A stretch of 64,000 nucleotides of DNA from Ciborinia camelliae. Lineage: Eukaryota > Ascomycota > Leotiomycetes > Helotiales > Sclerotiniaceae. A program made the position numbers and the translations under genes. The stretch covers positions 2,348,250 to 2,412,249 of the forward strand of contig JANPYM010000009.1 in NCBI GenBank assembly GCA_025890175.1. The letters are read 5' to 3'. The notes under the pieces were generated by a model. That model did no database searches, was not told the DNA's origin, and saw only the letters and a list, made by a program, of their open reading frames with translations. Below, piece after piece: positions 3,066-36,892 of the stretch; within the stretch, counting starts at the first letter, position 1, and each line of letters opens with the position of its first letter.

Positions 3066-5086
3066 AGGGAGGCTAGGCTAGGCTGGCTAGGCTGGCTGTG
3101 ATATACATGTTATGTCATGTCATGTTATGTTATGACTCTTGAGAAGGAAGGAATAGGGCGGGACTTTATTTTTTTTCCGGTTCGCAGAATCATATCGCAT
3201 CTTTCATGATGGATGGATGGATGGATGGAAGGAATGCCAGATCAGTTAGTACAGCTCAAACTACTTACCTAGATAGATATATGAATATTGGATATGGAAT
3301 TGCTTACTTGCTTACTTGCTTACTTGATTGTTTTACATTGCTCAGCTTGATTTCATAGCATCAAAACTCGTCTCAATGGCTCATTTACCTACCTACCTAC
3401 CTAGGTACCGTTGTATTAATAAATGGCATGCATGCAAGCACATTAGGTAGCTTAGCTTAGCTTAGATTAGGTTGGGTTGGGGTTATTCATATACTACCTA
3501 GGTAGTCAATATTTATTTGGAGATAGATACTAGGTATTGAAGAATAAATGGAATTTTATGGGGGATTGGATGGATGGATTTTGGGGTGAGGTGGGATGGG
3601 ATGGGATGTATAGGATGAGATTGCTATTGCTGTTGTTGTTGGTGGTGTTGTATTATTTATTATGATCGTAATTGTTGTTGTTGTTATCGTTGTTGGTTTT
3701 TTTGTTGCGGGTAAATAATATATAATATTAATAATAATGGTTTTTTTTATAGTATGGATCGCTGTCTTGTTTTGTTTTGTTTTGTTTTGTTTTGTTGAAT
3801 TATACTGTCAAGTGACATTCTTATTCTTACTCTCATTGTCAAAGACGAAAGTACCTAAGATCAGATTGATGGATTCCATGCCATGCCATACCATTAAATG
3901 GGATTTGTTCGTGCTCATCTCATCTCATTTGTATATTGGTTATCTTTGGCTTTAGCTATACCTTTGCGGACTTGTGAAGCTGAGATAATATGATATCGGG
4001 AATCATCTTGGTTTTTATATCTAGATATTCTAATTGCATCTGGTTGTTGTGAGGTTTGCTGATTTTGAGCTATGCCCAGGTGGGATTTTACTTGAGGGGG
4101 CCGAGGGATGGAGAAGTGGAGGTGGGAAAAGTGGAGTGAATGACATTCTGCGAATATATGGGAATAGGCTCAAGGAAGCTTTTATATGCAGACAGACCTC
4201 GATATGGGAAGTTTGGTTATAGCTGTAGGAAGACTCGGTGAGCTCCCTTGCTTGTTTGTGCTGGGGAATTGGATAGCTCTGTTCTTTTTTTCTTCTGGAC
4301 ATTTGTTTACACTTGGGTCCAATGTATATTTTGGACTCGGAACCTCGGATTTCTCTTCTGTTGATTTAGCCTATGACTAGCCAATTCATTCCAATAATGC
4401 TAGAGGGCCAGGCTCTCTTTTTATGCCAAAAGAAGTGGATGGCTTCAAGTGCTTGCTTTTCGTAAGATCCTAGACGATCAAGTCGACGAGGCTTAAAATA
4501 CTGGTAACGGGAGCGTGCATGAGAGCGCGTTTGCAGAATATGACTGAAGATTACGGATAGGCCATACTTTTGATAGATGGGTAACTCAGATATCAAGAAA
4601 AGGTTCAAGTTATTGAGGATCACCCAATATTCATTAGATAGGTACTAAAAAGTGGTTCTGTAATGAAATTCCCTCTGATATTGAATTTTCTCAAACTTCA
4701 GCCCAACTCATTATGGCAAACCTTTACATACCCCCCTTTAATTCGAAGAACACTCCGCTGGCGCGGGGTAGATATGTTGAGATGGACATGACCCCTCTAA
4801 ATATTCACTTGTATATTTGAATCTACTATCTACTTCTTCAGCTGCTTCTCTAATTCAATCAATACACCCCGCAGAATGCGGATATCTCGGATGATATCTA
4901 TCTTTATTTAAGTTATTTAAATCAACACTGAACACAAAATCTCTGTCCATTACACATCCCCAATCGCATCTTTATTTGCCTTTACAAACTCGCGTATTAT
5001 TACTTGTGGGTTTCCTAATATTGAAGAAACTATCACCCGCATCACCCAGACACTACTTGCGTTGTTTGATAGATTCCAAAGCCATC
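3066..5086. other. Gene-free interval with simple repeats
   Basis: No supported gene. It holds short microsatellites: GGAT around 3210-3230, tacttgct around 3300-3325, tttg/ttgtt around 3620-3800, and a perfect acctacctaccta/taggta stretch near 3390-3410. Open frames at 3737-4623 on either strand have no recognisable domain and look like chance frames. Confidence 0.5.
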
Positions 5087-17200: not shown

Positions 17201-18950
17201 TTATAATATTTGCTTTAGATTTCTAACTCGGAATCCAGCCTCTTGAGAGATGTAATATCATGCTAATTCACCCAAAATTACATGAATGGTAGAGATTCAC
17301 CTATGTGGAGTATGCCGCAAGAATGGAAACCGAAGTCATTTCTTGGTTTCAACTTGAAGGCTTTCTATATAAGATTCGAGGAATATTCTTCTTATCCAAC
17401 AGCGAGTATTGTAAAGAGCGAGGGTAATCTACGATGGAGAATGCCGCAGTATTTCTAGCCACTAGGTGGATGTTTTAAAATAGTAAAAATGTAGGATGAG
17501 ATACAATGAATTTGACAACCCATCATTCTACTCAGAACGATATTTTCTCAATTGATTGGATTGTCGAAACTTTTATTTAGTGAAAGTAATAATTCAATAT
17601 TTTTCACCAAAATATCAGCAGACAAGCAAGAGTGTCGTTGAACACAAGTGTTAATTTCATACAGGCAATAGATAACTAGCCTGAGATCCTTGAAAATTTG
17701 AAGAACTTCTACGGCTTCTCTTCCATTTCAGAATCTGTACCAATTCCTTCGAGATGTCGTTGAATATACGATCAAAAAGTCTTGAAAAAAGGCTTTGTTG
17801 CATAGAATTTATTTCCCGTAAATGATTTAAAACTTCAATATGGATCTAATACTAATAATGCTTTTTTACCCCTTCTCTATCAAGCTTCCACAAGTGTATC
17901 ATAGGTGAGGGGGGTGGTTTCTTTTGGGGATGAATAGTTACTTCCGGATGCTAATTCGCTACAATGGTATTAGAAGATTAGGAATATACGTACATGGCAA
18001 GTTGCCCCGCTTAAGCTAATATAACACTATGGCTTCTGAGTTCTGCTTTTCTTCCCAAAGTTAATCGGAAGTACAATATAAAAGCGAGGTGTTCTTCAAT
18101 TCTCGATCCATATATTCGAAAAAAGGTTATGTACAGGGGCGATTGTCGCATTGCTTTCATAGCACATGACGATGACGAGTCGGTGAAACAAGGATAAAAC
18201 AGAGAGACTCCGTAGGGGAACAATAGGAACGTTGTCGAGTTGTAATCCACGTTTCTATTTGATATTCATAACCTTTAGATGTGTATAAAGGTCTCGCTGT
18301 CGCTTTTTCAACACACTATCAGATGCTAGCTCACTCGAGTCCAGAATCACACCAATCCTGGTTTCAAAGAGCTCACAAGGAAAACCCACCAAAACTTCTA
18401 GAACTACTGAGCAGACGGACATAAGTAGGAAGCAGCAGTTGTAGTACGAGTTGGTTATCTCAATCTGTTGCAACAGCCATGTCTTATATATCGACCAGTA
18501 GAAGAATATGTGACTGATATGTGCGAGAATAGAAGGTGAATCTTTTCTACGAAGCCTCGGAGGTAATTCCCAGTACCAGAGAGAATATGATAAATTCGCA
18601 TGCCAGAATTCAACGAGGGAATTTAACTTACACACAGTTATTCTCCCCGCCCCCACACAGAAAAGGGGGGTAAGTCTTTATCCGAGCCCCGCTTTTTTAT
18701 TCCCCGCGATCAACCTCATCGCAATTCATCCACCAAAACTTCAAGGATACGAGACACAACTCATTGCAGTCGGCGTTGTATTCGGACCACATAAAAAGGA
18801 TGAAGACAACTCCGACAAATATAATAGGCAAAGTAAGTTTTCTTTTCTTTCTCCAAACATCTTCATTTCACTTCATACCCATCACCATACAAAATAAACA
18901 AACAACCTCCCGAACAAACAACTACACACTTACTATCGACAATTACCCCA
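14269..18950. other. Long gene-poor interval (4.7 kb)
   Basis: No gene can be supported. It contains scattered acctacctaggtaggt repeats (14,410, 14,810, 15,255), a TGGCTGGC run near 14,895-14,970, and two adjacent minus-strand frames at 18,011-18,250 and 18,255-18,656. The latter has hydrophobic stretches but no motif I recognise; it could be a fragment of a decayed membrane protein. The region just upstream of 18,951 (18,760-18,950) reads as a likely promoter and leader, with a GT...AG-like leader intron possible after 18,832. Confidence 0.4.
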
Positions 18951-19415
18951 ATGCCTATCAAAAAGATTCTCCTCCTCAACGGTCCCAACCTAAACCTTCT
19001 CGGAACCCGTGAACCCCACATCTACGGCCACGAAACCCTCGCCTCCATCGAATCCTCACTCTCCACCTACCTCTCCACCCTGACTCCCGCCATCACCCTC
19101 CTTACCTTCCAAAGTAACTGGGAAGGAGCACTTGTCGATCGAATCCATGAAGCTCGTACCGATGGCACCGATGCTATTGTTATAAATCCTGCTGCGTTTA
19201 CGCATTATAGTGTTGCGCTGCGGGATGCTCTGACGGGAGTTGATATTCCTTTTGTGGAGGTGCATATTACTAATGTGCATAAGAGGGAGGAGTTTCGTCA
19301 TAAGAGCTTTTTGAGTGATAAGGCTGAGGCGGTTATTTGTGGATTGGGGGTTTTTGGATATAGGGCGGCGGTGGAGTGGTGTGTTGGGTATTTGGAGGAG
19401 AAACCGAAGTTGTGA
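18951..19415 (+). CDS. Type II 3-dehydroquinate dehydratase (catabolic)
   Basis: Converts 3-dehydroquinate to 3-dehydroshikimate. The stand-alone type II enzyme in filamentous fungi normally serves quinate breakdown (QutE/Qa-2), while the biosynthetic step is in the pentafunctional AROM protein. The 154-residue frame has the usual family length. Near the N-terminus is [18 protein letters not shown], with the catalytic Tyr25 and Arg20. The substrate-binding segment [10 protein letters not shown] gives Asn79 and His85, and [14 protein letters not shown] gives the conserved His105 and Arg112. It starts at the ATG directly preceding this motif and is intronless. No quinate permease, dehydrogenase or repressor gene is visible nearby, so the gene is apart from a classical qut cluster within this window. 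Family assignment is secure; the catabolic role is inferred. Confidence 0.95.
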
Positions 19416-23835: not shown

Positions 23836-25198
23836 ATGTCGTCATACAGTCGAATCCGAGACCTTGCCTCTCGGATTTCAAGGTATGCAATCGAGATTGA
23901 AACACATTTGTCGAGCCAAAACATTGCGCAACCAAATTTTGAGCCAGATTCTCCTTTCGAGTTGCCTCCGACAATACACACGACCCAAGCAGCCCTTCTT
24001 GAAGCGGCTGACGAACTTACGCTACTCCTCCAAGGGCCGATGCAATCGTTAATGCATATTGCTGGATATTCTGTGAGGTTTCGATTTGCTTGCTCACCAT
24101 TTTAATTCCTACTAAACTGTATACCAGCACAACGCTCGAAATTCCCTTCACGCGATCATCCGCTATGATCTCGCTACTGCTCTTCCAATTGACTCAACTG
24201 CAACCTTCAAGACTATTGCACTGGCACGGGGACTAAATACTCTCGATACTACTCGTGTATTACGTCACGCAATGACCTATCGCATATTTTCTGAACCGAG
24301 CCCCGGGGTAGTGAGCCACACTGCATCGTCACGTTTGCTTGCCGAGCGCCCGGATCTGCGAGCATGGATAGCGACGACACTGGATGAGCTTTTACCGGCG
24401 GCATCAAGAATGATAGATGCAATGGAGCAATGGCCGGGCTCTGAAGAACCCAATGAGGCTGGATGGAATATTGCAAACAATGAATCAAAACCGATGTTTG
24501 AGGTGTTGGGCAATGATAGGAAGCGGGCGAAGAATTTCGCAGGCTCGATGACATTTTTTGAGGCACGACCAGGCATAGCTGTGAAGTACTTGGTTGAGGA
24601 TGAGGGCTTGCAATGGGGCAAGGTCAAGAAGATGGTTGATGTTGGTGGGAGTCATGGAAAGGTTGCAATTGCACTTGCCAGGAAGTATACTGGTTTAAGT
24701 TGTATAGTTCAAGATCTCGAAAGTGTCGTGAGTGGAGCGCAAGTCCCCGCTGATCTGGTTGACTCTATCACCTTCATGCCCCATGACTTCTTCAATGCCC
24801 AGCCTGTAGTAGACGCTGATGTCTATCTTCTGAGGTGGGTATTGCATGACTGGTCTGATAAGTATGCAATCAAGATCTTACGAGCTCTTGTTCCCGCCAT
24901 GAGGAGTGGAACAAAGGTTGTGATCAACGAGTCATGTCTTCCAGACTTCGGGACCATGTCACTCTATGGACAACGCTTTCTGCGGTAAGCGCAATCCAAT
25001 CTGTCAGAATAAGAGAATATCATCTAACACCGGAACAGAGCCACCGACTTGACGATGAAGCAAATTCAAAACGCACGAGAGCGGGATCAAGAAGACTGGA
25101 CTGCACTTGTAAAATCTACGGACAGTAGGTATCACCTTCAGAGTATTTCTCGGCCTGAAGGATCTGAACTTGCCATTATCACTTTAGTTTGGCAATGA
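23836..25198 (+). CDS. Class I SAM-dependent O-methyltransferase (cluster copy 1)
   Basis: Plant-COMT-like fungal O-methyltransferase (PF00891 type) that transfers methyl from S-adenosylmethionine to a hydroxyl group; the acceptor is unknown. Three exons fit: 23836-24072, 24128-24984 and 25039-25198 (introns 55 and 54 bases, GT-AG, consistent phases), giving 417 residues, the usual length. The N-terminal dimerisation/winged-helix half is followed by SAM motif I VDVGGSHGK at about residues 249-257. The catalytic-base segment LRWVLHDW places His319 as the general base. The C-terminus reads RPEGSELAIITLVW, matching the family end. It converges on the UstYa-like gene at 25317-26159 with about 118 bases between stops, a pairing repeated at 33-35 kb. 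A methyltransferase also occurs in the phomopsin-type dikaritin clusters, so tailoring of the peptide encoded at 26.7-27.2 kb is a reasonable inference, unproven. Confidence 0.9.
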
Positions 25199-25316
25199 TT
25201 TCACTCTTTTCCTCTGGTCAGGATCATTTAATTTCGTTTTGAGCATAATCGAAAATTGATTAAAGCATTCTGTCCCTACATACTGCAAAAATTACGATTC
25301 AATCTATCTGACAGTA

Positions 25317-26159
25317 CTACTCCTTCGCATTGCGCTCATTTACCCAGTCAACCATCTGCCACCAATTCCTGCAGGGATATGTAGTTCCAAAAGCCAATAT
25401 TCCTTGATGATAAGATGCCTCTACCTGAAGAGAAGTGTCGGCGTGGCACATAACGGTCTGTCGTAAGAATTCGACGCAATGCAAGACGAGGGTTTTATCG
25501 ATGTGTTGCGGCATATTACTGATATCTTCCCCAGCTATCAATGCCTTCTTAAGGTCTTCTTCTTGATAGAATCTCTTTCGGAGTGCATCCTGCTATGATG
25601 TTAGTCCATCTGATTCACTGAAGTACCACATGTTGAATGTACTCACGACACAATGTAGTTGGTGAAATCCTGCGAATCCGGATCGCTCGGGTTTGTCTTC
25701 TGGCCACTCGAAGAGCCCATGGTGATCATTGGGGTATAACCCCTCCCAGAGCTTATCGGTATCCGGAGATGGCCTCTGTAGATATGTTCTGTTCGATTTG
25801 AATGTAATTGCAACAGGATCAACCATAAAAAGATATTAGCATTGAAATTTCGAGAAGAAGCACATAAAACAGTAGATTATTCACTCACGGTCAAGGATTG
25901 GACGTGGATAACCGTTGTTGTATGGGTGAGAGAGGTTTTTCTCCAATGAATATGCTTTTCCTGCAAGAAATCCGATCCCCGCACTTGTAATAAATTCTGT
26001 AGAGACAAATATTGCACAAAGGCAATACAAAACCCGTTGCCTTGGTCTGTCCTTTCCTCCGTATTGCGGTGAAGCTTTTGAGTGTGCGAGAAGTTCATTC
26101 TCCTCTTGGTCGAGTGACTCGTAGACATGGTCTTTTGAGGTGCTCTCTGTCGCCGCCAT
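25317..26159 (-). CDS. UstYa-like (DUF3328) oxidase, copy 1, possibly defective
   Basis: UstYa-family proteins oxidatively cyclise or modify fungal peptide and polyketide products using two HxxHC motifs. Proposed exons on the minus strand: 26159-25889, about 25825-25647 and 25589-25317 (about 240 residues). Residues 43-67 form one transmembrane anchor after a short cytosolic N-terminus. The first motif HQLHC (about 145-149) is intact. In the second, where HIDHC is expected just before the conserved VEFLRQTVMC, the reading is HID, five extra residues (KTLVL), then HC, so the motif spacing is broken. The first intron has a clear GTGAGT donor and a gctaat branch-like site, but the expected acceptor position at about 25825-25827 has no AG. 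These two oddities may mark a failing copy, a sequencing error, or an unusual splice. Convergent with the methyltransferase at 23836-25198. Confidence 0.8.
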
Positions 26160-26704
26160 ACTTCTTTCAGGGCTTCACTCGGTATAAGAAGATTGATGGG
26201 AAGTAAGTGGGCTGCAATTGAGTTGTACGTGAGCTGTAAGATTTCCAGTTTATATGTTGGGTGGGATGGGAGGCAGGCTTGCTCGTGAAAGATATCCTCG
26301 CGGGTCATGGGCCTTGCGCAATATACCACCTTGGGTGATTACATGCGGGGTGACAGTCTTTTCTTTAAGACTTTGTGGGCACGGGTTCCAACAAATTAAC
26401 TTACAGGGGATGTTCTTTATGCACTGTTGGAATAGTGGGTAGACGGTCGCTTCTAGGTGAAGAATTCGATTGGGCCAACTGTTTGGGCTGGGGCTAGACG
26501 AGAGAGAGAATTATGATGGTCATGTTGCTAAAATATCCTTCTACGGGCAAAATACGTATCGAGATACTACATATTCATTATACTTGTGTAGAGAAAGCGG
26601 CTTTTATCATTCAAACTTGAACTATGGTAATCAAGACTGTCCAGTTCACGGAGTATGGGCTATTTGCTATATATTTCCTGACCAAAGAGTAGCCAACCAA
26701 GTCC

Positions 26705-27231
26705 CTAGTACTCTTCACTGTAAGGTTTCTCATCAGGGTAGACGATGCTGTCGTCGGCCTCGGCTACTATAAAACCCAATTAGCCACCACTGCCAAAATT
26801 AATTCCATTGGAAAGTCATACCTGTGTGTCTCTTGTACTCTTCACTATAGAGCTTCTCGTCTCGATAGACGATGCTGTCATCCGCTTCAGCTGCCAAAGG
26901 AAAATCAGCTACCATTGGTGAGGAAAGGTCTTGCTGGAATCTCACAAGTGTGTCTCTTATATTCCTCGGTATAGAACTTCTCATCTGGATAGATAATGCT
27001 ATCATCGGCTTCGGTGTTTGCGGCTGCTATATAACGTAAAGTCAGTAAAAGAATATGAACGGGCATGAGAAGTTTGGCTTCTGGAATCTTACCAGGAGTT
27101 CTTTTGTATTCCTCGCTGTACAAATTCTCATCGGGATACACGATCACATCATCAGTTCCAGCGCTTCTTTTGATCGGCCCTGCAATAGCCAATGTGCTGA
27201 GCACAATTGTAAGAATTGTTGAGGCACGCAT
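26705..27231 (-). CDS. Secreted RiPP precursor with four Kex2-flanked Tyr-rich core repeats
   Basis: Predicted precursor of a ribosomally made, post-translationally modified peptide of the dikaritin/KEP kind. Minus-strand exons: 27231-27093, 27026-26946, 26890-26822 and 26766-26705; all three introns (66, 55, 55 bases) are GT-AG and phase 1; 116 residues. A signal peptide (about 1-18, cleaved near AIAG) is followed by Lys21-Arg22. Four repeats follow, ending in EEY at Tyr42, Tyr69, Tyr92 and Tyr116. The core pattern is Y-[P/R]-D-E-[N/K]-x-Y-[S/T]-E-E-Y, with Lys-Arg after the first three and the stop codon directly after the fourth Tyr. Linkers carry T/H-P/T then acidic residues (EADDS). Each repeat is essentially one exon. 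It is surrounded by three UstYa-like genes and two methyltransferases, as expected for a pathway that crosslinks Tyr side chains. The product is unknown and it is not a sequence I recognise. Confidence 0.85.
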
Positions 27232-27630
27232 ATTCTGGAGATTTTTCTGCTCGGAATTGATCGTATGTATTCAGGTGAATTTGTGGTCTCGGAATTTAAG
27301 AGGATGTCTACGGTATTGGTTTGGGGTGCATGCGTTGTCATATAAGTAAGTGTTTATAAAATTTAACCGGCCGCGATGCCAATGTCATAAAGTCTCGGCA
27401 ATTCGGAAAATAATTTGACTTTCTAGGCCCCGTCTTAATTTTTTGGGTGTCCATATATATGCAGCAAGTCAGCATTCCGATATCTTTCCAGACCCAAAAT
27501 CATTTAAAAGAACATCATGTTACATGCTCTGCTTTGACTCTTCTGTGCAGTTTATATGTGCTAGTGGTCTCGAAACGGACAACATTCAATTGACGTCTCA
27601 AGAGCATCGGCCTCTCGCCCACCATTCAAA
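27232..27630. promoter_or_regulatory. Divergent promoter between precursor and UstYa-like copy 2
   Basis: A 399-base intergenic space separates the start codons of the precursor (minus) and the UstYa-like gene at 27631 (plus), so both are probably controlled from it. At 27396-27406 it holds CGG, five bases, CGG (cggcaattcgg), a direct-repeat arrangement of the kind bound by Zn2Cys6 fungal activators. A ccggccgcg patch lies at about 27368. Which factor binds, if any, cannot be told, and no Zn2Cys6 gene was recognised in the window. Confidence 0.4.
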
Positions 27631-28496
27631 ATGCTAACAAAAAAGGGAAAATTTGGGTCTCCGGAACTTGAAGCTGCGAAATCGATTGGGGCCGTTCCAT
27701 TCCTGCTTCCAGATGGATCAGGATATTCCCATACTGATGTCTCAGGCATCGCTATAGCGAAGCCTGCGAGAACTGGAAGAAAAATAGGCTTAGCAGTGGC
27801 GCTACACGCCGGTCTAATCTTGCTCTATTCAATCACGAGTATTACCTTGATTGTCTGGTTCCATGATTCAAGAATGGAGAAGTCTCGTTCTGGTAAGTGC
27901 TGTCTATCCAATCTGAAGCCTAGATCCGTTGACGCTAAACGCCGCGGATAGCTTTACCTGACATGGACGTAAAGTACCACTCCCACCAGTACTCTCTTAT
28001 GCGCGAAAGCCCTTTCGTCGGCCCTCCATCCCCATCTGTCGATGAAGCCTGGCACACCTTACTTTCAAACATGAGCATACGCGTCAGCGATAAGGAGTTA
28101 TCCGCACACTCACTCACATCTGTCGCTCTGCCTGACGGTGGAAACCTTGCCTGGGTGGGTGTATTCCACGAATTGCATTGTGTGAAGATGCTTCAACAAG
28201 CTAATTACCACGAATACTACCACCACAATGTGGGAGGCCAGGAATTGAGAGATTTGCAGGTGCATGTTGGACATTGTATTGGATTGCTAAGGGCTACGGT
28301 TATGTGTCGACCGTATCTGGCAAGTCTTACGACGTTTGTGTGGAGGGAGGGGTTGAAAGGTCCACTGTTGGCTCCAGAGAGGCCGGTGAGGCAATGCGTT
28401 AACTGGGATGTGTTGATGGGTAGTATTCGAGACCGAGTTGTGGCGAAGGAAGAGCTTGAAAGACTGAAGAATCCTCTTGGTATGGCTGATGCTTAA
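27631..28496 (+). CDS. UstYa-like (DUF3328) oxidase, copy 2
   Basis: Predicted membrane-anchored oxidase that would act on the peptide encoded divergently next door. Two exons, 27631-27892 and 27952-28496, with a 59-base GTAAGT...TAG intron, give 268 residues. A soluble N-terminus of about 50 residues precedes one transmembrane helix (about 51-76). Then comes the DUF3328 body, with PPSPSVDEAWHTLL, the first metal-binding motif HELHC (160-164) and the second, HVGHC (192-196), followed by IGLLRATVMC. Both motifs are intact, unlike copy 1. The tail after the second motif is longer than in copies 1 and 3 and includes a CVNWDVL segment, which corresponds to the CxxW near the end of the family. Among the three copies this is the best candidate for the cyclase partner of the precursor, because of its shared promoter and intact motifs; that is inference. 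Confidence 0.9.
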
Positions 28497-30944
28497 ACAT
28501 TGTCGTTGTAGAGACGTATTACAAACTTGCCTTGCATGGATTACTAGGATGTTTGTGGAGAATATTCTGACAGCAGTCAAAGATGAATAACTACAGTAAA
28601 AACTTCATTCTGTTTCTTGTAACTAGATATCTGCATAAGGGTAATCTCAAAAGTTTGCTGTACAACGTATTATCAAACTGTCGCCATTCTATCTAGTTTG
28701 TATTACCTCGTTCCACTATTCAAGAGCCTAGACCGGATGACAATGCACTTGCCGCTTTGAACAGAAAATGAACCGATATTCGTTGAATCGTCAACGGCAC
28801 TGTGCCGCCAACTCGCTGATAGAAAACAGTCCTATGCACGCACTTAGTGATATTGGGACTAGTCAAAAGAGTTTTCAATATTACCCGACATGTATCATCT
28901 GCTGTCATCATCTCCAAAGATTTTCAGATCGCCGTGTGACTTGTCTAAAGCACCAAGATCCTTTCGCGCTTTAAGGTTGCTAATTCTGGACAGAGAAAGT
29001 TGAGGAACTGATCGTCTATGGAGCAACAGTATTAATTCATCCTGGTGCTTACTCGTAACCTCCATGACATGGAAGACCCATGTGTTTTATTAAATTGAAG
29101 ATGCAAGTGATCTGTTTAATGAGTTCATCAACCCATCTACTTGTGTAGCCAGGGGTTGCTATCTAGTCTTTTTAGGACTGATGTAGGCAGGATATTCTCT
29201 TGATTGCGTTAAGACTTGGGTATCGAACCATTTTGAGCGAGTCTGCAACTCTGCAATGTTCCTCTATTATTAACCGGCGAACCAGTCTGACAAGTTAGTA
29301 ATCTCCTACGGTTGACCACATATAATGGGTCTGCTGTAGATGCGGGGGCAGTCCGAGCCTAAGAACTCATGCAAGAGGAAAGATTGTAAAATAAGGCCAG
29401 GACCATCTTGAGCGCGTCTGCAACCCTCCAATTTTCAAGAGTGCTTCACGGGCGATCCATTACAACAGACTAACAATCTCTTGTGGTGGAGCTCCTCTGG
29501 TGGATCTTCTGTAGTGGATCTGCTGCGGAGGTGGGGCGGGACTCGGGAGTTACAACCGAATCAATCCATGCAGGAGAAACGGAGAATTAGATCTGTCGCA
29601 GCTCGGATTGCAGTGCGGTATGCATCGATCAGACTGCTGCTGTTTTGGTATTATATCAAAAGTAACCAATAGAGGGCTTCAAACCCTATCTCCGAATTCG
29701 CTTACTCCCGCACCCGCACCCGTTGCATAGAACGAGTCGTGACGGGGCGGGTTCTTATCCGCGGACCCCATTCTTATTAATGGCTTTCTGCGGATGATTG
29801 AAGAATTTTGTATACAGATTCCTCAGTACCTCGGTATCTACTTCGACAGTGGTCCGTAAATAAGGGGTCTAGAACACCCGACTGCATGAAAATCCCAATA
29901 TATACTCATCTTCCGGTATTTAGTTCACAGATAATACACAACTACTCCGTACATATTTTATTGGAAATAATACTACGCCTCTCAAAACTGAAGAACCCAC
30001 TCGTGGAATACCGGCCATTTGTTTACGGTAAGCCGGTGGCCATTCCCACAAATGACATTTTATTGGGCTGTGGCTCTAACTTCAATGGCCACCTTGCTGA
30101 TGGGTTACCCCCCCACCTAGAAACCCTGTATTAAGCATACCCAAGTTTTTTTATTCAGGGATAAGATCTAGTGTGCATTGATCTGAGTTCAGGGAAAGAA
30201 CTTACAAGAAGTGTAATTCCAGGCAGTAATTGCATCTGATGAATGGTGACAGGGGCATGATACGAGCATCATGCTAACCCAGCTATATCACTTACCTGAA
30301 CCAATCAAAAGGGGGATACCAAAGCTCGACTGTAATTGAAGTCTGATATCCTTTCACTGGAGTGGAGTTGGAAGTTCTATAATACGCTTAGGCCTCTCTA
30401 CCCTAGATTCCCCGCTCACATACCCCGCTTTGTATCGAATGAAGTGTCGCAACATCCAAAATGGATGGGACTAGTGACGACTTTACATTTCTTAGATTAG
30501 TTGTATTTGATCAAAAGGCTAGTAAAATTGAAATATTTTTACCTAGACCCTTAAGGCTACGACGCACGGTGAGAAGTCGTAGTTCTAGAAGTCTTATTGA
30601 TTAGGTATGTGGGAAGGCTAAAGGTTGTAAGAGGTTAGGCCTCTTGGCTAAATATATACACAAATGGATGCCTTAGTCAGGCTCAAAAGAGCCTTACAAC
30701 GGATACTGATGACTGGAGCAACGGGGAACTTGGTACCAGTAATTAGATTGATCAAAGGGCACAGAGAGGTCACAAATCAGACAATTAGATAAAGTTTAGT
30801 TAGAATAGATCAACTGCGAGTATAGTAGATCACCCCAGAATCTCTATAGTATTCATCTTCTGAAGAATCAGTCTGAGCCAATTACCACGGCCCCGTAGAA
30901 GATCATTGCGGAAGTTTTCAGCAGACACGTGAAGTACTGCCTAC
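28497..30944. other. Gene-free gap inside the cluster
   Basis: No gene is supported in 2.4 kb. A diverged tandem duplication lies at about 29,228-29,590 (separate entry). A G+C-richer patch at 29,700-29,770 includes cgcacccgcacccg. Short frames at 28,768, 29,481 and 29,808 show no motif. The stretch could hold remnants of lost cluster genes, but I cannot identify any. Confidence 0.4.
29228..29590. repeat. Diverged tandem duplication, about 180 bases per copy
   Basis: Two neighbouring segments align by eye. Copy 1 starts near 29,228 (ttttgagcgagtctgcaact) and copy 2 near 29,402 (tcttgagcgcgtctgcaacc). Both continue through a taa/aatctc block and a ggtctgctgtag versus gatctgctgcgg block followed by a G-rich stretch. 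Identity is partial, so the duplication is old. No coding function is seen. Confidence 0.4.
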
Positions 30945-32364
30945 CTACCACTCCCTAGGGATTCCCTGGCCACTCTGATTCGTATTTTCAATTTGTGTAA
31001 GTTGATGTTCCGATCCTGTCTCTGTAGGCTGCGTAACTTTCAAGTTGGAGCTTTTGCCGGTCTTGTAGTATTTCCCATTAGTAGCAGTTGAACTGAAGTT
31101 GTAACCCTTTGGCGTGGTAAAGTATCGATCGTAGAGTGTCTTGAGCGCTGGAACACTTCCACACACAAGAACGACGAAATTCTCGGCACCACTCCACATA
31201 ACGAGGTTGTAAGTGTCCCCTGTGTAAATTAGCGATTGGCCATTATTTACTCCATTGCGAAGCATAAATATGAGCCATTGTAACTTACAAGTAATGTCAG
31301 AGTGCGCATTCAGCGAGTATAAGTAAGTTATCTTGACGATACCAGCAACCGCAGTGCTTCAAGAATCAGTAAACTGGCACGATGATAAACAAGGTCTTTT
31401 GTTTCAGAAATGACTTACAAGAGTCCCGGTCCCAGCAGAAAACAGAGAATGATCTTGTTCTTCGTAGGCATCTGAAGACCCGAAATGATGGTCGCAGGCA
31501 GAAGCGCAAAAACGGTATCAGTAAATACATTGAAGCCTGGGGAGAGATAAGTTAGTAAGCCCATCTAGGAAGCGGTGGCGTCGACCTTGACCGTAGAGAC
31601 TCGGACTCACTGGCTTGAAATATCGAGAAATTGGCCTGAACGGTAGGGTTCCAACAGTGTGCTTTTATTGTTGTGTCCCATAAAGCACTAGGGGGGTTGC
31701 ATTGGGCATACGTGAGGATGCTGTCAAGTGTATTGATGATAGCCATAAGTGTCATGATGGTAACAATAGTCCAGAACCTCCATCCACGAATCGGGTGAAG
31801 AATGCGAATGAGAAGCAAGCCAACCGATATCTTCCCAGGCGTAAAGGCACTGATGCCCCAGCACTGCAGTACGTAATTCCATTTGATACATTCCGTAATT
31901 TGCGATGGACTCAAGTAGTAGAGATGCTTGAAACCGCCGATAGTTGCTTCGTACGTGCAGAAACAGCTCAAAGCTACTTGAAATATCTGTTGATCCTCAT
32001 TAGCAAGAACAGAAAATGATTAAGAAGACTGTGAGGGAAAGCTCACGAGGCTGATAAGCATGAGCCAGTCATCTGGCCAGTGGCACGAGCAAGTCGACGA
32101 GCGTAGAATCGGAGGCCAATGACTAGCATAGCTATCGCAGCAATTGTCCAGTATAGAGCAATAACGGCCCCACCACGATCTCGATCGCCGTCACCAGTTT
32201 ATGGTAGACTCAATCAGACATTATTGGTGATATGCGAGCAAAATCTGGAACAGTGCTTTGTGGGAGGTCTGAAGCTTTTCCAGTCGGTGTTAATATAAAG
32301 TAAACCTTGAACTAGTGTTCGTCCCTTGAGTGAAATCTGCAAGTTCTTGGCGATTGAGAACCAT
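30945..32364 (-). pseudogene. SAT4/PTH11-type fungal rhodopsin-fold membrane protein, N-terminus broken
   Basis: Family of seven-helix fungal membrane proteins (PF20684 type), some acting as surface receptors. Downstream exons read cleanly on the minus strand: 31986-31611, 31536-31419, 31356-31289 and 31219-30945, with matching phases and GT-AG introns. They carry the family segments WGISAFTPGKISVGLLLIRI, LMAIINTLDSILTYAQCNPP, DTVFALLPATII and DTYNLVMWSGAENFVVLVCG. The first exon, ending at 32047, is damaged. The segment ALYWTIAAIAMLVIGLRFYA is in one frame, while the following DDWLMLISL lies in another (break near 32068-32072). A stop stands upstream without an ATG in frame. A possible original start is at 32364. 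Either the gene is recently dead or the assembly has errors at this end. It lies between UstYa-like copy 2 and methyltransferase copy 2; a role in the pathway is unknown. Confidence 0.75.
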
Positions 32365-33017
32365 CTTAACTTCAAGTATTCTAAAGTTCAAATATTGACT
32401 TAATTTTGGAGCGGGAATAGTGGGTGAGATTGAGATCCTTCCAATTTTCCTGGATGATATGTGTGGGTTGGATTTTCCTTAGAATTTGGCTTGCCCATCT
32501 TTTTGGCTCACCCATCTTGTTTTGAGCTACAAAATCGAATATGAAACTTCATTTCATCTCGGCCTTTACAAGTGGCGCAATATAAGCTACGAGAGAGGTT
32601 ATAAAGGGGCGTTGCCAATAATATATACACGCTATAGGCAAGGACTATTATTGGTTGGCCCAAGCGGCCGTATTCAAATCTCGTGAGCTATAATTAGCTG
32701 AAAAAAAATCAACAGAAAGTCAACAGTAAACCAACAGTAAACGAAAAGCTAGTCAGGTTCACTTGTATATTTGTCACATTAAAGTTGGATTGCGGCTCAT
32801 CAATACTTCCAGGGTGTTTGCTGTGCCACCCTGCAAAACTTTCCCAATCCGGTTCCTTTTGCAGCAGCTTATAAACATCCAAGTTTTCTTCTCAAAATCG
32901 CGACATTCGTTTACTTCCTGGTTGGGAAACAGAAAATACTTGCTTTCAAATAATTTTGGCAGACATTGATTGTATTGATTCACATTTTCGACGCAGTTTA
33001 CAGACCTTGATTTGACC

Positions 33018-34465
33018 ATGGAGGCAATTACTACTCTCGCAAAAGAGATACAGAATGCAGCTGCTACTGCAGATGAGGCTGGCCGTAAGGAATTGTTGGA
33101 TTCTCTCCGAGATTTGCAATATTCTATCGAGAAGCCAGAAGATACAATGCAAAGAGTCATCCATCTGGTATGATATGATCTCTTAAACATGTACCTACAA
33201 GTCGTCTCCTAACATTACCTTACTTTTTCAGCATTTAGTCATCGCTATCACTCGAACTGCGATTGATCTCAAACTTTTTAATATTCTCGGCGAATCGGAT
33301 GGCCCTCTACAACTAAAAGACTTGGCTTCCAGCACTGGGGCTGACCCGACGCTTCTCGGTTAGTAAATATAGCGCTAAAGCTACAGCTAGAGCTACACCC
33401 ACCCCCCCCCCCCNNNNNNNNNNCCCCCCCCCCCCCAAAAAAAGATTACGTCAAGCTGATGTTTTTCTAGGGAGAATACTTCGAATGCTTTCTTCGTTGG
33501 GAATGATCAAAGAAACAGGAGAGGATGAATTTACTTCCAATCAAACGAGCAATAACCTCTCCATTCCCGAAATTCAAGCTGGCCTCTACCACAAGTATGA
33601 AACACTTTGTTCAGTTCTCTTTACCATGTTCTGTGACTTATCATTCATGATTGCAGTTACGATGTTTTGGGCCCCGCCTATCAAGTTCTACCCGACTTTC
33701 TGGCTTCTACCAAATACCAAAGTCCCACAGAGACTCACAAGGCAGCTTTCCAGAAAGCCTGGAATACCGACTTGCCATTGTGGTTATGGTTTCAATCGCG
33801 GCCCAAGGAAACCGCACAATTTAATCGCTTCATGATTGCCCAACGATCCAGTACACCGAATGCCTTCAACTTCTTTCCCATCGAAGAGGAATGCAAAGAC
33901 TGGCCCGCAGAAAACCCACTTTTTGTTGATGTTGGCGGAGCTTCAGGTCAACAGTGTATTGAATTCAGGAAAAAATTTCCCGACATCAAGGGCAGGGTCA
34001 TATTTCAGGATCTACCTGGAGAAATCGAGCACGCCGTATCGCAAGGTCTGCCAGAGGGAGTGGAAGCCATGGTGCATGACTTCTACACTCCACAAGTCAT
34101 AAAGGGTGAGTGAAATAGGAATGCCCTTCTCAGGAAAAGAATTAACACATCTAGGCGCAAAATTCTACTACTTGCGTGCAATTCTCCACGACCACCTTGA
34201 TGACAAAGCAATCCTCATATTGAAGAATATCATGCAAGTCATGGATAAAGATTCCTTGATATTGCTTGATGAAATGGTGTTACCAAACCACAACGTTGAT
34301 TGGTTTGCTACCCAAACTGATTTGACAATGTTGGCGGCATTTGGCTCATTGGAGCGTACGGAAGCGCAGTGGAAGAATCTTCTGGAGGGTGTTGGCTTAA
34401 AGGTGCGAAATATTGTTACTTATACGCACGCGTTCAGACTCAGCGTAATAGCAGCAAGTCTTTGA
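33018..34465 (+). CDS. Class I SAM-dependent O-methyltransferase (cluster copy 2)
   Basis: Second COMT-like O-methyltransferase. Five exons fit: 33018-33167, 33232-33358, 33471-33594, 33657-34105 and 34155-34465, all GT-AG with consistent phases, giving 386 residues. The N-terminal half carries a winged-helix region (LASSTGADPTLLGRILRMLS, split by intron 2) that aligns substrate and dimer. SAM motif I VDVGGASG is at about 224-231. The segment LRAILHDH gives His295 as the likely catalytic base, with Asp296 next to it. The C-terminus ends in a short HAFRLSVIAASL and lacks the EAVW-type ending. Intron 2 contains a poly-C tract interrupted by ten Ns, so that intron is not fully sequenced, but no coding frame is lost. 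Different intron positions from copy 1 mean the two are not recent duplicates. It converges on the UstYa-like gene at 34686-35494. Confidence 0.9.
33403..33437. other. Poly-C tract with 10-N assembly gap
   Basis: Ten N characters at 33414-33423 sit inside a run of C on both sides, within intron 2 of the methyltransferase. The true length of the homopolymer is unknown. Confidence 0.95.
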
Positions 34466-34685
34466 TTGGATTGGGCACACAATGTCAAATGTTGAAGTAC
34501 AACTGTAGACAATATTTGTATATGCCAGAAAATTCTACAAAAACAATGAAAACGCAGTGCACAAAAGTTACCAGCGAGATTGCTTGATTGTGATGCCAAC
34601 AACTTTGTCAGTAGTAGATTAGGTAGCACGGGACTGCGTCGTAAGAACTAAGACTGACTATACTAACACATGTTTGATAATATCT

Positions 34686-35494
34686 TCAATGGTGACCCTG
34701 GTGATCCATCAAACCAAGGGCTTTCACTCTCTCCCTCTCCTCTTCTATGTTGTAGTTCTGCCACTTCTCAACCCACTGTGTGACTTGTTCCCAACTTTTA
34801 CACTTGTGTTCGACCCCAAATCCCGATACTCCGCCCTTCTCCTGATCCTTCTCCTCGATAGCGAGGTCGGGTTGGCACATTAAGCTTTGTCGAATCAGAT
34901 CGATGCAGTGTCTAATATGTGGAGGAGAAGCCATCATCGGGAGTTCATCCTCAAGAATGGCAGGCCCGGTAGTTGCAGCTGAAAGAAGTAACCAATAAGT
35001 GCTACGAAGACCATTCTTCCGAATTGTCAGGATGATAATGGTATTTTAGATGGTGCTTCAACGGCTTACCAGGCAATGCAATTGATGAAACACCGACAGT
35101 GCTGAGCGATGAGGCGCAAGTTTGGGATGTTGGAAGTACCCCCCTTGAGACGGAAAAAGAGAGTCCCATGCTGCATTTGTTTCGTTCGAGGGCTTTTGTC
35201 CATAAGTCTGATTGTATACGAATATTTCTGATTTTGTAGTGACTAGGCAAAAAGTCAGGATGTTCTTGTAACTAGAGCTCACGAATACGTACGATGGATA
35301 AAGTCATCTGATTCTATCTTACTGTAGTACCTTCCAGCAGAAAAAGAGGCTGCGGATAAAAATATGGCCAGTAAAACAAAGACGAAATGTGACTTTGAGA
35401 AAGGAACACAAGGTTTCCGAGGCTGCTTCTCCAAAGGATTCAACAAGGAATAATACCGGGAAGGTGGCATTGTAAAAAGCTTCACCATTTTCAA
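34686..35494 (-). CDS. UstYa-like (DUF3328) oxidase, copy 3
   Basis: Minus-strand exons 35494-35293, 35242-35070 and 35015-34686 give 234 residues; an internal ATG at 35470 is an alternative start. The first donor is GTACGT, and the second intron (54 bases) ends at ttcggaag before AATGGTCTTCG. This acceptor, not the more obvious ttcag further on, keeps the frame and restores the family segment NGLRSTYW. A transmembrane helix spans about residues 36-55 (HFVFVLLAIFLSAASFSAG). HQLHC is at 120-124 and HIRHC at 158-162, followed by IDLIRQSLMC; both motifs are intact. KCKSWEQVTQW near the end is the usual CxxW region. It is convergent with methyltransferase copy 2, mirroring the pair at 23.8-26.2 kb. 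A role in tailoring the peptide is inferred from family and location. Confidence 0.9.
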
Positions 35495-35893
35495 ATTTGA
35501 AATATGTGAAAAGAATACGCATCTATTTACCTGTCTGGTTTGATAGAACCCATTTTGTCGGAACGCATAGGCCCTTACATATTATCAAGTAAGAAAGCGG
35601 GTTGAACCTGCCCAGGTGCATATGCATATGTATCCTTTGCATATCCGTTACGAACCTACAGCGCATAATCAATTTATGCACCCTGCCTCTCAGCGGCATA
35701 TAACCCAGACAAATTGACGCTGAGAAAAAAGGTTACAGCTAGAAATATTGACAAATACGATACCCCGCTATCACTGCCTCTTAGCTCTCCACTTTTTATC
35801 AGCTCTTGTTCATCCGTCAAAACACATAGATACAAGCCCAACCATACTAAAGATTCTTACAGGTTTCTGTATTAACAATCCGATAATTTCATC

Positions 35894-36892
35894 ATGAGTC
35901 TTCCAAAAACAATGCAAGCTATCTACGCTTCTCTTCCCTCAGCGACAGCGTAACTGTGACTTACTCTTAACAATCTGCCTATCCCAACTATCCCTTCAGG
36001 ATCCAACCCAGCTTTGTTCCGCATTCATGCATCAGGAATCAACCCTTCCGATGTTGCTAATTCGATCCTTGATCGATTCGGTGGAAAAAAGCCCATAATT
36101 TCAGGTCGCGACTTCGCTGGTACCGTTATTCAAGCTCCATCCGATGCCCAACTTGACGGTGCCGAGGTATATTGAACTTCTGGTCGAGAACTCAGTCTCT
36201 CCGTTGATGGAACTCATGCCGAATATGTTGCTATACCTGTTGAGGGCTTGGCTACTAAGCCCAAATCACTCAGTTGGGCCCAGGCGGCAGTCGTTGGTGT
36301 TCCTTAACGGCTTATTTGATGCGAGAGAAGGCTGCTGCACGTGCCGGAGATGTAGTTTTGATATTTGGCGCCAAGAGAGCTGTCTGAAAAGCCGCAACAA
36401 AAATCGGAAAGGCCAAAGGACTCAAAATAATTACTATATCGAGGACAGATGGCGCTGATGTAAATGTGGCAACAGATGAAAATTTGCAGAAGGTGTTAGA
36501 ATTAAACAATGAAAAGAGGACCCAGCATCATTCTTGACTGCGCAGGATCCCCGGTTTTAATGGAGAAGGGTCTTGCTATATTAGGAAAGGCTGGAAGATA
36601 TATGTTCGTTTCTGGTATGAGTGGAGGCGGCCCCGAAGTGAAGGTTAATATCATGAAGATGCTGGCAATGGATCAAAGCTTGCATGGAGTCAACAGCTGG
36701 AGCCTTAGTTTAGCTGAAGTAAAGGACCTCATGGCTAAGCTAGGCAAAATGTTTGAAGATGAAGAAATCAAGAGTCCAGAGGAAAATTCGCTGTCCAAAG
36801 TTAATATTGTGGATGCGGTTGATACTTATCAAGAAGTTGCGAAAGTAGATGGCAGGAAGTTTGTGATTGTTTTGCAGGATCAAGAAGTTTGA
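35894..36892 (+). pseudogene. MDR-superfamily (quinone oxidoreductase / zinc-type alcohol dehydrogenase-like) pseudogene
   Basis: Fragments in several plus-strand frames together match one NADP-dependent medium-chain reductase. These are FRIHASGINPSDVANSILDR (frame from about 36,000), HAEYVAIPVEGLATKPKSLS (about 36,200), AGDVVLIFGAKRAV then KAATKIGKAKGLKIITISRT (about 36,340), and ILDCAGSPVLMEKGLAILGK (36,530 onward). Breaks: an in-frame TGA near 36,174 where Gly is expected before TSGRE; a frame change near 36,305 after VVGVP; another TGA near 36,401 where the Gly of the AVGK nucleotide-binding turn is expected; and a frame change near 36,510. With this many lesions it is a dead gene rather than a sequencing artefact. 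It borders the peptide cluster and may be a lost member; reductases occur in related pathways (AprR in asperipin-2a). Confidence 0.85.

What the first reader, a model, noticed from the sequence alone, without database searches (positions are those of the whole stretch)
23836..36892. Candidate undescribed ribosomal-peptide (dikaritin/KEP-like) biosynthetic cluster
A secreted multi-repeat precursor with Kex2 sites (26705-27231) lies among three UstYa-like genes (25317-26159, 27631-28496, 34686-35494) and two O-methyltransferases (23836-25198, 33018-34465). In ustiloxin, phomopsin, asperipin-2a and victorin pathways, repeated cores released from a Kex2-processed precursor are oxidatively crosslinked by UstYa-type proteins. 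The core here (Y-x-D-E-x-x-Y-x-E-E-Y) differs from the short core sequences I know for those systems, being longer, acidic and carrying three Tyr. No tyrosinase or peptidase is visible.
Basis: partly seen in the sequence, partly recalled or inferred. Interest (0 to 1): 0.92.

Follow-up and report, generated by a model that had tools for sequence, protein, structure and literature searches.

The report
Fungal repeat-peptide precursor with UstYa oxidases
A camellia petal-blight fungus carries a gene for a secreted protein made of four near-identical tyrosine-rich peptides, flanked by genes of a copper-oxidase family known to tie such peptides into rings, and the same trio of genes recurs in related fungi, which points to a so far uncharacterised family of modified fungal peptides.

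Summary
On the minus strand, 27231-26705 encodes a 115-aa secreted-type protein of four repeats (family consensus DDSIVYPDEKLYAEEYKR), one repeat per exon, separated by KR sites. The window is Ciborinia camelliae. The precursor lies between two UstYa genes, and the trio UstYa2-precursor-UstYa1 recurs with consecutive locus tags in Botrytis elliptica and Cudoniella acicularis; in Periconia digitata, of another class, a precursor and a UstYa1 relative lie on contigs of the same length. The best reading is a dikaritin-like RiPP module.

(2) The core in this window is a diverged copy; all four repeats depart from the family consensus. (3) UstYa1 here looks impaired (expected splice acceptor absent; one copper-motif His, present in 7 of 7 relatives, replaced), though this is not proof. 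(4) The first 12 residues of the unit match another repeat precursor near a UstYa gene in the same genome, so this is a longer relative of a commoner precursor type. No expression, cleavage, crosslink or methylation is shown. Ordinary in kind, new in core.

The parts
26705..27231 (-). Repeat precursor gene; exons 27231-27093, 27023-26946, 26890-26822, 26766-26705; signal-peptide-like start, KR sites, four repeats, one per exon
   Evidence: public protein NHQ30_007738; repeat conservation
27631..28496 (+). UstYa2 (DUF3328/PF11807), 268 aa, exons 27631-27892 and 27952-28496; both HxxHC motifs; a conserved Asp of CxxD is Tyr here
   Evidence: identical to NHQ30_007739 (P0011)
25317..26159 (-). 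UstYa1 (DUF3328/PF11807); first HxxHC present, second lacks its first His; splice acceptor expected from B. deweyae P0012 absent; alternative in-frame model 26159-25885, 25788-25647, 25589-25317
23836..25198 (+). Methyltransf_2 protein OMT1, three exons; convergent with UstYa1 at 119 bp; membership in the module unproven
33018..34465 (+). Methyltransf_2 protein OMT2, five exons, nearest solved structure LepI; membership unproven
34686..35488 (-). UstYa3 (DUF3328/PF11807), three exons, both HxxHC motifs; membership unproven

Best explanation
A dikaritin-like RiPP module of three genes. The precursor enters the secretory pathway (inferred from its N terminus). Kex2-type proteases cut at KR and free four acidic peptides of 20-24 residues ending in EEY (inferred). 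UstYa2 and, where intact, UstYa1 are membrane-anchored copper enzymes of the DUF3328 family that oxidise the peptides, most likely by crosslinking Tyr side chains (inferred from the family). Shown here: the repeat structure, the constraint on it, and the conserved linkage of precursor, UstYa1 and UstYa2. Not shown: expression, cleavage, any crosslink, any methylation. In this isolate the module may be partly decayed at UstYa1.
For: Repeats beyond chance and under constraint. In B. elliptica BELL_0894g00010 is UstYa2-like and g00020 carries the repeats followed by UstYa1 sequence; in C. acicularis G7Y89_g4254 carries repeats followed by UstYa1 and g4255 is UstYa2-like; in C. camelliae the tags are 007738 and 007739. 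Tree support for the UstYa2 relatives 100/99 with B. elliptica and 87/85 with Cudoniella. In 20 repeat copies from 8 sequences D1, Y6, D8, Y12 and E14 are in 20 of 20. DUF3328 genes are enriched beside such precursors (PMC7329392 sections 6-7), and CctR shows the family to be copper enzymes with HxxHC sites (PMC12435403 parts 1-2 of 3).
Against: No expression or chemical data. DUF3328 enzymes also hydroxylate and halogenate and occur in non-RiPP clusters (PMC12048977 passages), so crosslinking is not implied by their presence alone. Y16 is F in 3 of 20 copies. No tyrosinase or peptidase was recognised among the window ORFs that I looked at, though asperipin-2a lacks a peptidase too. UstYa1 of the window looks impaired.
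Confidence: 0.7

Rival explanations
1. The mature core is short: only the part around D-x-(I/V)-x-Y-P is modified, and LY-x-EEY is a follower or spacer trimmed away. The unit is then an extended form of the precursor type with DADTAIVYPAEKR repeats found near a UstYa gene elsewhere in this genome.
For: The L034 precursor unit matches the first 12 residues of the consensus unit; 0 of 20,000 shuffles of the L034 unit reach the score. Known dikaritins need further peptidase trimming (PMC9233826 passages).
Against: Y12, E14 and E15 are as conserved as the first half (20, 20 and 19 of 20), which a mere spacer would not need. No trimming peptidase recognised nearby.
Confidence: 0.35
2. The module in this isolate is decaying: UstYa1 is dead or mis-spliced and the product is lost or altered, while relatives keep it.
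For: UstYa1: no AG where the orthologue's exon should begin; His to Leu in the second HxxHC, His in 7 of 7 relatives; more own changes than B. deweyae against five outgroups (7:2, 6:2, 5:1, 4:1, 5:2; small and not independent). All 4 window repeats deviate at 1 of 7 positions Y6-Y12. A Botryotinia convoluta protein looks like a remnant of the precursor (P0004, E 1.8).
Against: The precursor frame is intact. UstYa2 has no excess of changes (8:9, 8:8, 9:5, 8:8). A six-frame scan of 20 own-genome UstYa stretches, introns left in, has His at that place in 10 of 21 UstYa-like matches, so the family may tolerate other residues. An assembly error is possible.
Confidence: 0.45
3. An unmodified secreted peptide (signal or pheromone-like KEP) next to unrelated UstYa genes.
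For: 78% of KEP genes surveyed have no DUF3328 neighbour (6120 of 7878, PMC7329392 section 7).
Against: The same two UstYa partners stay with the precursor in three genera.
Confidence: 0.1
4. The UstYa and methyltransferase genes serve another pathway and the precursor is incidental.
For: DUF3328 genes occur in polyketide and non-ribosomal peptide clusters; OMT2 is nearest to LepI of a pyridone alkaloid pathway.
Against: No polyketide or peptide synthetase gene was noticed among the window ORFs of at least 110 aa (read by eye) or in the 9 proteins scanned; linkage to the precursor is conserved.
Confidence: 0.07

Closest known systems
Dikaritins (ustiloxins, phomopsins, asperipin-2a, epichloecyclins, victorin)
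   Same: Secreted repeat precursor with Kex2-type sites, UstYa/DUF3328 genes beside it, Tyr in the repeat
   Different: Unit is 16 conserved residues with three Tyr and many acids; ustiloxins and phomopsins share an EDYXI core (PMC6339444 section 10); no tyrosinase or peptidase recognised; one repeat per exon; product unknown
KEP types conserved in Pezizomycotina (Le Marquer motif 3, DADAATXYV[A/V]D) and the L034 precursor of this genome (DADTAIVYPAEKR)
   Same: The window unit starts with a similar acidic stretch followed by I-V-Y-P; L034 also lies within a few kb of a UstYa gene
   Different: The window unit runs on by LY-x-EEY before KR; L034 has 8 repeats readable in one frame, without introns. 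The likeness to motif 3 is by eye only
CctR and other DUF3328 copper enzymes
   Same: PF11807; both HxxHC motifs in UstYa2 and UstYa3
   Different: UstYa1 of the window lacks the first His of the second motif; substrates unknown
LepI, HpiI and OxaC-type O-methyltransferase-fold enzymes
   Same: OMT1 and OMT2 are nearest to these among solved structures (142 and 294 bits)
   Different: OMT2 has His where LepI has Arg295, the methyltransferase state

Membership tests
KEP (Kex2-processed repeat protein) | Signal peptide | tested here: inconclusive
   N terminus MRASTILTIVLSTLAIAG looks like one by eye; no predictor was run
KEP (Kex2-processed repeat protein) | Repeats separated by KR or similar | tested here: met
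   KR before repeat 1 and after repeats 1-3; four repeats
Dikaritin | DUF3328 (UstYa) gene at the precursor, the class-defining enzyme in the later definition (PMC12048977 passages) | tested here: met
   UstYa1 and UstYa2 on either side; also linked in B. elliptica and C. acicularis
Dikaritin | Double HxxHC in the DUF3328 proteins | tested here: met
   UstYa2 and UstYa3 have both; UstYa1 of the window has one, its 7 relatives both
Dikaritin | Tyrosinase gene (earlier five-gene definition) | tested here: inconclusive
   None recognised by eye in window ORFs of at least 110 aa; no profile search of the whole window; not required in the later definition
Dikaritin | Methyltransferase gene | tested here: inconclusive
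   Two Methyltransf_2 genes near by; their link to the module untested in relatives
Dikaritin | Transporter or peptidase gene | tested here: inconclusive
   None recognised in the cluster stretch
Dikaritin | Peptide cyclised by UstYa-type oxidation | not testable with these tools
   Needs LC-MS/MS and deletion strains
LepI-type pericyclase (for OMT2) | Arg in place of the methyltransferase His (LepI Arg295) | tested here: not met
   His at that place in the alignment; residue roles from PMC10491745 passages

The most novel reading that the evidence does not exclude
The conserved 16-residue unit D-(D/E)-x-(I/V)-x-Y-P-D-E-K-L-Y-x-E-E-Y is modified as a whole by two different UstYa enzymes, giving a larger, acidic, multiply Tyr-linked peptide class present in two fungal classes (Leotiomycetes and Dothideomycetes) and distinct from the five reported dikaritins.
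Probability: 0.22. Interest if true: 0.65.

Novelty: new member of a known kind. Interest (0 to 1): 0.45.

Why it matters
Only five dikaritins had been reported by 2022 against at least 838 KEP types (PMC10512285 passages). A defined core that recurs with the same two UstYa partners in three Leotiomycete genera, with a relative in a Dothideomycete, gives a concrete target: predicted masses, a named gene pair, and relatives with a better-kept copy. It also shows how such precursors hide in annotation: here with a retained intron, in B. elliptica and C. acicularis run together with the next gene.

Tried and rejected
Considered and set aside: chance repeats; further copies in the own genome (none found; only best candidates are scored there); exon-plus-intron duplication as origin of the repeats (introns not clearly alike: 179, 1744 and 38 of 2000 shuffles reach the score for pairs 1-2, 1-3, 2-3); a LepI-type pericyclase role of OMT2; a solved relative of UstYa2 (none at E<=1); an AlphaFold model of UstYa2 from 6 rows (mean pLDDT 44.1, not used); a mobile element splitting the cluster (28600-30900 holds a 129-bp exact copy from C11 and a dispersed repeat with matches at 18 other places; nature not worked out). 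Umemura's wide type G-5 (35 KEPs, 19 genera) is unlikely to be this family as a whole, since searches returned no protein from most of those genera; her Fig. 5 and supplements could not be read, so single members may be in her tables.

Limits: all three protein searches are used; no fungal genome but the window's own could be read, so relatives are known by protein sequence, contig length and locus tag only; no DNA of relatives, so no codon test between species.
Full report
Where the window lies. UstYa2 as I model it is letter for letter the public protein NHQ30_007739 of Ciborinia camelliae, and the precursor is NHQ30_007738. The own genome has 46.2 Mb in 27 contigs. C. camelliae belongs to Helotiales, Sclerotiniaceae and infects only camellia flowers (abstracts of PMC10512376 and PMC10673376 as shown in the search listing).

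The precursor. The minus strand from 27231 to 26705 gives four exons and 115 aa. Each exon carries one repeat; all three introns are phase 1 and begin two codons and one base after a KR pair. The public model keeps intron 1, which has no stop in frame. Two facts favour splicing: B. elliptica P0006 reads from repeat 1 to repeat 2 without it, and in P0003 the stretch after the donor has diverged while the exon has not. Four Y.DE..Y.EEY matches are in the window against none in 100 Markov sequences, and silent sites are near saturation while pN is 0.05-0.17.

Relatives of the precursor. Two searches were made: one search gave 4 proteins at E<=10 of 604 candidates, one search gave 6 at E<=10 of 5066 candidates, P0001 being in both. 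They are Botrytis elliptica P0006, Cudoniella acicularis P0008, Periconia digitata P0007, a JGI metagenome protein P0002, a short sequence P0003, two weak ENA hits P0009 and P0010 (E 0.26 and 0.38) and a Botryotinia convoluta protein P0004 (E 1.8) that looks like a remnant. For conservation I used 20 repeat copies from 8 sequences and left out P0001 (same gene) and P0004: D1, Y6, D8, Y12 and E14 in 20 of 20; P7, E9 and E15 in 19; K10 in 18; L11 in 16; position 16 is Y in 16 and F in 3. The last B. elliptica copy is cut by its fused gene model. From Y6 to Y12 each of the 4 window copies differs from the consensus at 1 of 7 positions; so does 1 of 4 copies in B. elliptica, 0 of 1 in P0003, 0 of 3 in P0002, 0 of 4 in Periconia, 0 of 2 in Cudoniella; P0009 differs at 1 and P0010 at 2 positions.

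Linkage. The third and last search (profile of the three window UstYa proteins; 12 proteins at E<=1e-20 of 7997 scored) gave the partners. B. elliptica: g00010 is UstYa2-like and g00020 runs the repeats into UstYa1 sequence, both on a contig of 14,806 bases. C. acicularis: g4254 runs repeats into UstYa1, g4255 is UstYa2-like, both on 49,982 bases. In C. camelliae the tags are 007738 and 007739. I read the fused models as annotation merges of neighbours on one strand, the order seen in the window; a true fusion is not excluded. Botrytis deweyae has a UstYa1 (P0012, 82%) but no precursor was returned from it. The tree (15 rows) joins UstYa2 of window and B. elliptica (100/99) and then Cudoniella (87/85). 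The other side, with the UstYa1 relatives and the long-branched UstYa3, is set apart with 100/100 but is open inside, so UstYa1 orthology rests on identity (85% to P0012 in the alignment) and position. No public C. camelliae protein for UstYa1 or UstYa3 came back, so they may not be annotated.

State of the enzymes. The double HxxHC motif forms the binuclear copper site of this family by model and metal data, and alanine changes of the conserved His and Cys abolished CctR activity (PMC12435403, parts 1 and 2 of 3). UstYa2 and UstYa3 have both motifs; UstYa1 has one. At the missing His of the second motif 7 of 7 relatives have His (column 269). The B. deweyae protein continues after the first exon with EPVAITF; in the window the matching frame (DPVAITF) has no AG between the donor and that place (read by eye), so the only full-length model that I found uses another donor and acceptor and drops about nine residues. 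In UstYa2 an Asp kept in 5 of 5 relatives is Tyr. Against reading too much into this: a six-frame scan of 20 own-genome UstYa stretches, introns not removed, has His at the same place in 10 of 21 UstYa-like matches (two further matches did not look like UstYa and were left out), and UstYa2 shows no excess of change (8:9, 8:8, 9:5, 8:8) while UstYa1 does only in small numbers (7:2, 6:2, 5:1, 4:1, 5:2).

Other genes. OMT1 is nearest to HpiI among solved structures (142 bits) and OMT2 to LepI (294 bits). OMT2 has His where LepI has the Arg that replaces the methyltransferase His, so a methyltransferase role stays open; the same point was not checked for OMT1. OMT2 and UstYa3 are separated from the trio by a gene with a fungal rhodopsin domain (about 30.9-32.2 kb) and by a stretch with a dispersed repeat. 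I could not test whether they or OMT1 go with the trio in relatives.

Wider setting. Of 20 further UstYa stretches of this genome (9.9 kb each, chosen from the hits, not all of them) a scan for KR-spaced repeats flagged 6, and also the window; shuffled sequences 0 of 105. I read four of the six: L021, L028, L029 and L034 look like repeat precursors; L026 and L027 were not inspected. L034 has eight DADTAIVYP-type repeats; its unit matches the first 12 residues of the window family's consensus unit (0 of 20,000 shuffles). The window family thus looks like an extended form of another precursor type. Umemura counted 7878 KEPs, 838 types and 1758 KEPs with DUF3328 neighbours (PMC7329392, abstract and sections 6 and 7), and nine dikaritin clusters were reported in one apple-scab genome (PMC9632046 passages). 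So a new KEP-UstYa pair is expected; what is new is this core with its fixed partners. Text searches for pieces of the core found no paper with this core (one search found DADAAT in PMC6339444, the motif already named), nor did one with the species names (listing only), within an open-licence library without figures; supplements were not searched.

Verdict. The biochemical claim is an inference from gene partners, at about 0.7. The window holds a diverged and perhaps impaired copy; relatives such as B. elliptica or P. digitata would be better material. Signal peptide, Kex2 cutting and what I say of known dikaritins beyond the cited passages rest on general knowledge.

Noticed in passing
L034 (G000:C3:1723000-1732900), minus strand within 1000-2400: Repeat precursor with eight DADTAIVYP-type repeats and KR/RR sites a few kb from a UstYa gene; similar to the first 12 residues of the window unit.
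   Followed up: partly
L028, L021, L029: Further repeat precursors near UstYa genes in the same genome (units SADEDLIEQYKR, GDAKEALNAYQMFSEIERR, EPDRSVVGTGSDRYKR).
   Followed up: no
L038:3203-2889 (minus), with UstYa2-like 4307-4902 (+) and UstYa3-like 6400-5682 (-): Best-scoring own-genome relatives, among the 20 stretches, of both UstYa2 and UstYa3 lie together; a possible single-unit precursor (DGDEYVTWPDDSVDES) reads divergently from the UstYa2-like gene, by one of several splice forms.
   Followed up: partly
window 35895-36892: Zinc-type oxidoreductase gene that looks broken: the reading from its apparent ATG stops after 19 codons and later pieces lie in other frames.
   Followed up: no
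window 30216-30344 and 30567-30713: A 129-bp stretch identical to one on C11, and a dispersed repeat with matches at 18 other places (73-90% identity), both between the trio and the OMT2/UstYa3 pair.
   Followed up: no
window 33416-33425: Ten N in a C run inside OMT2 intron 2, an assembly gap; single-base oddities near by may be assembly errors.
   Followed up: no
window 18837-19412: Type II dehydroquinase (190 bits), not thought to belong to the cluster.
   Followed up: no
P0004, Botryotinia convoluta BCON_0314g00090: Short protein that looks like a decayed copy of the precursor (E 1.8).
   Followed up: no
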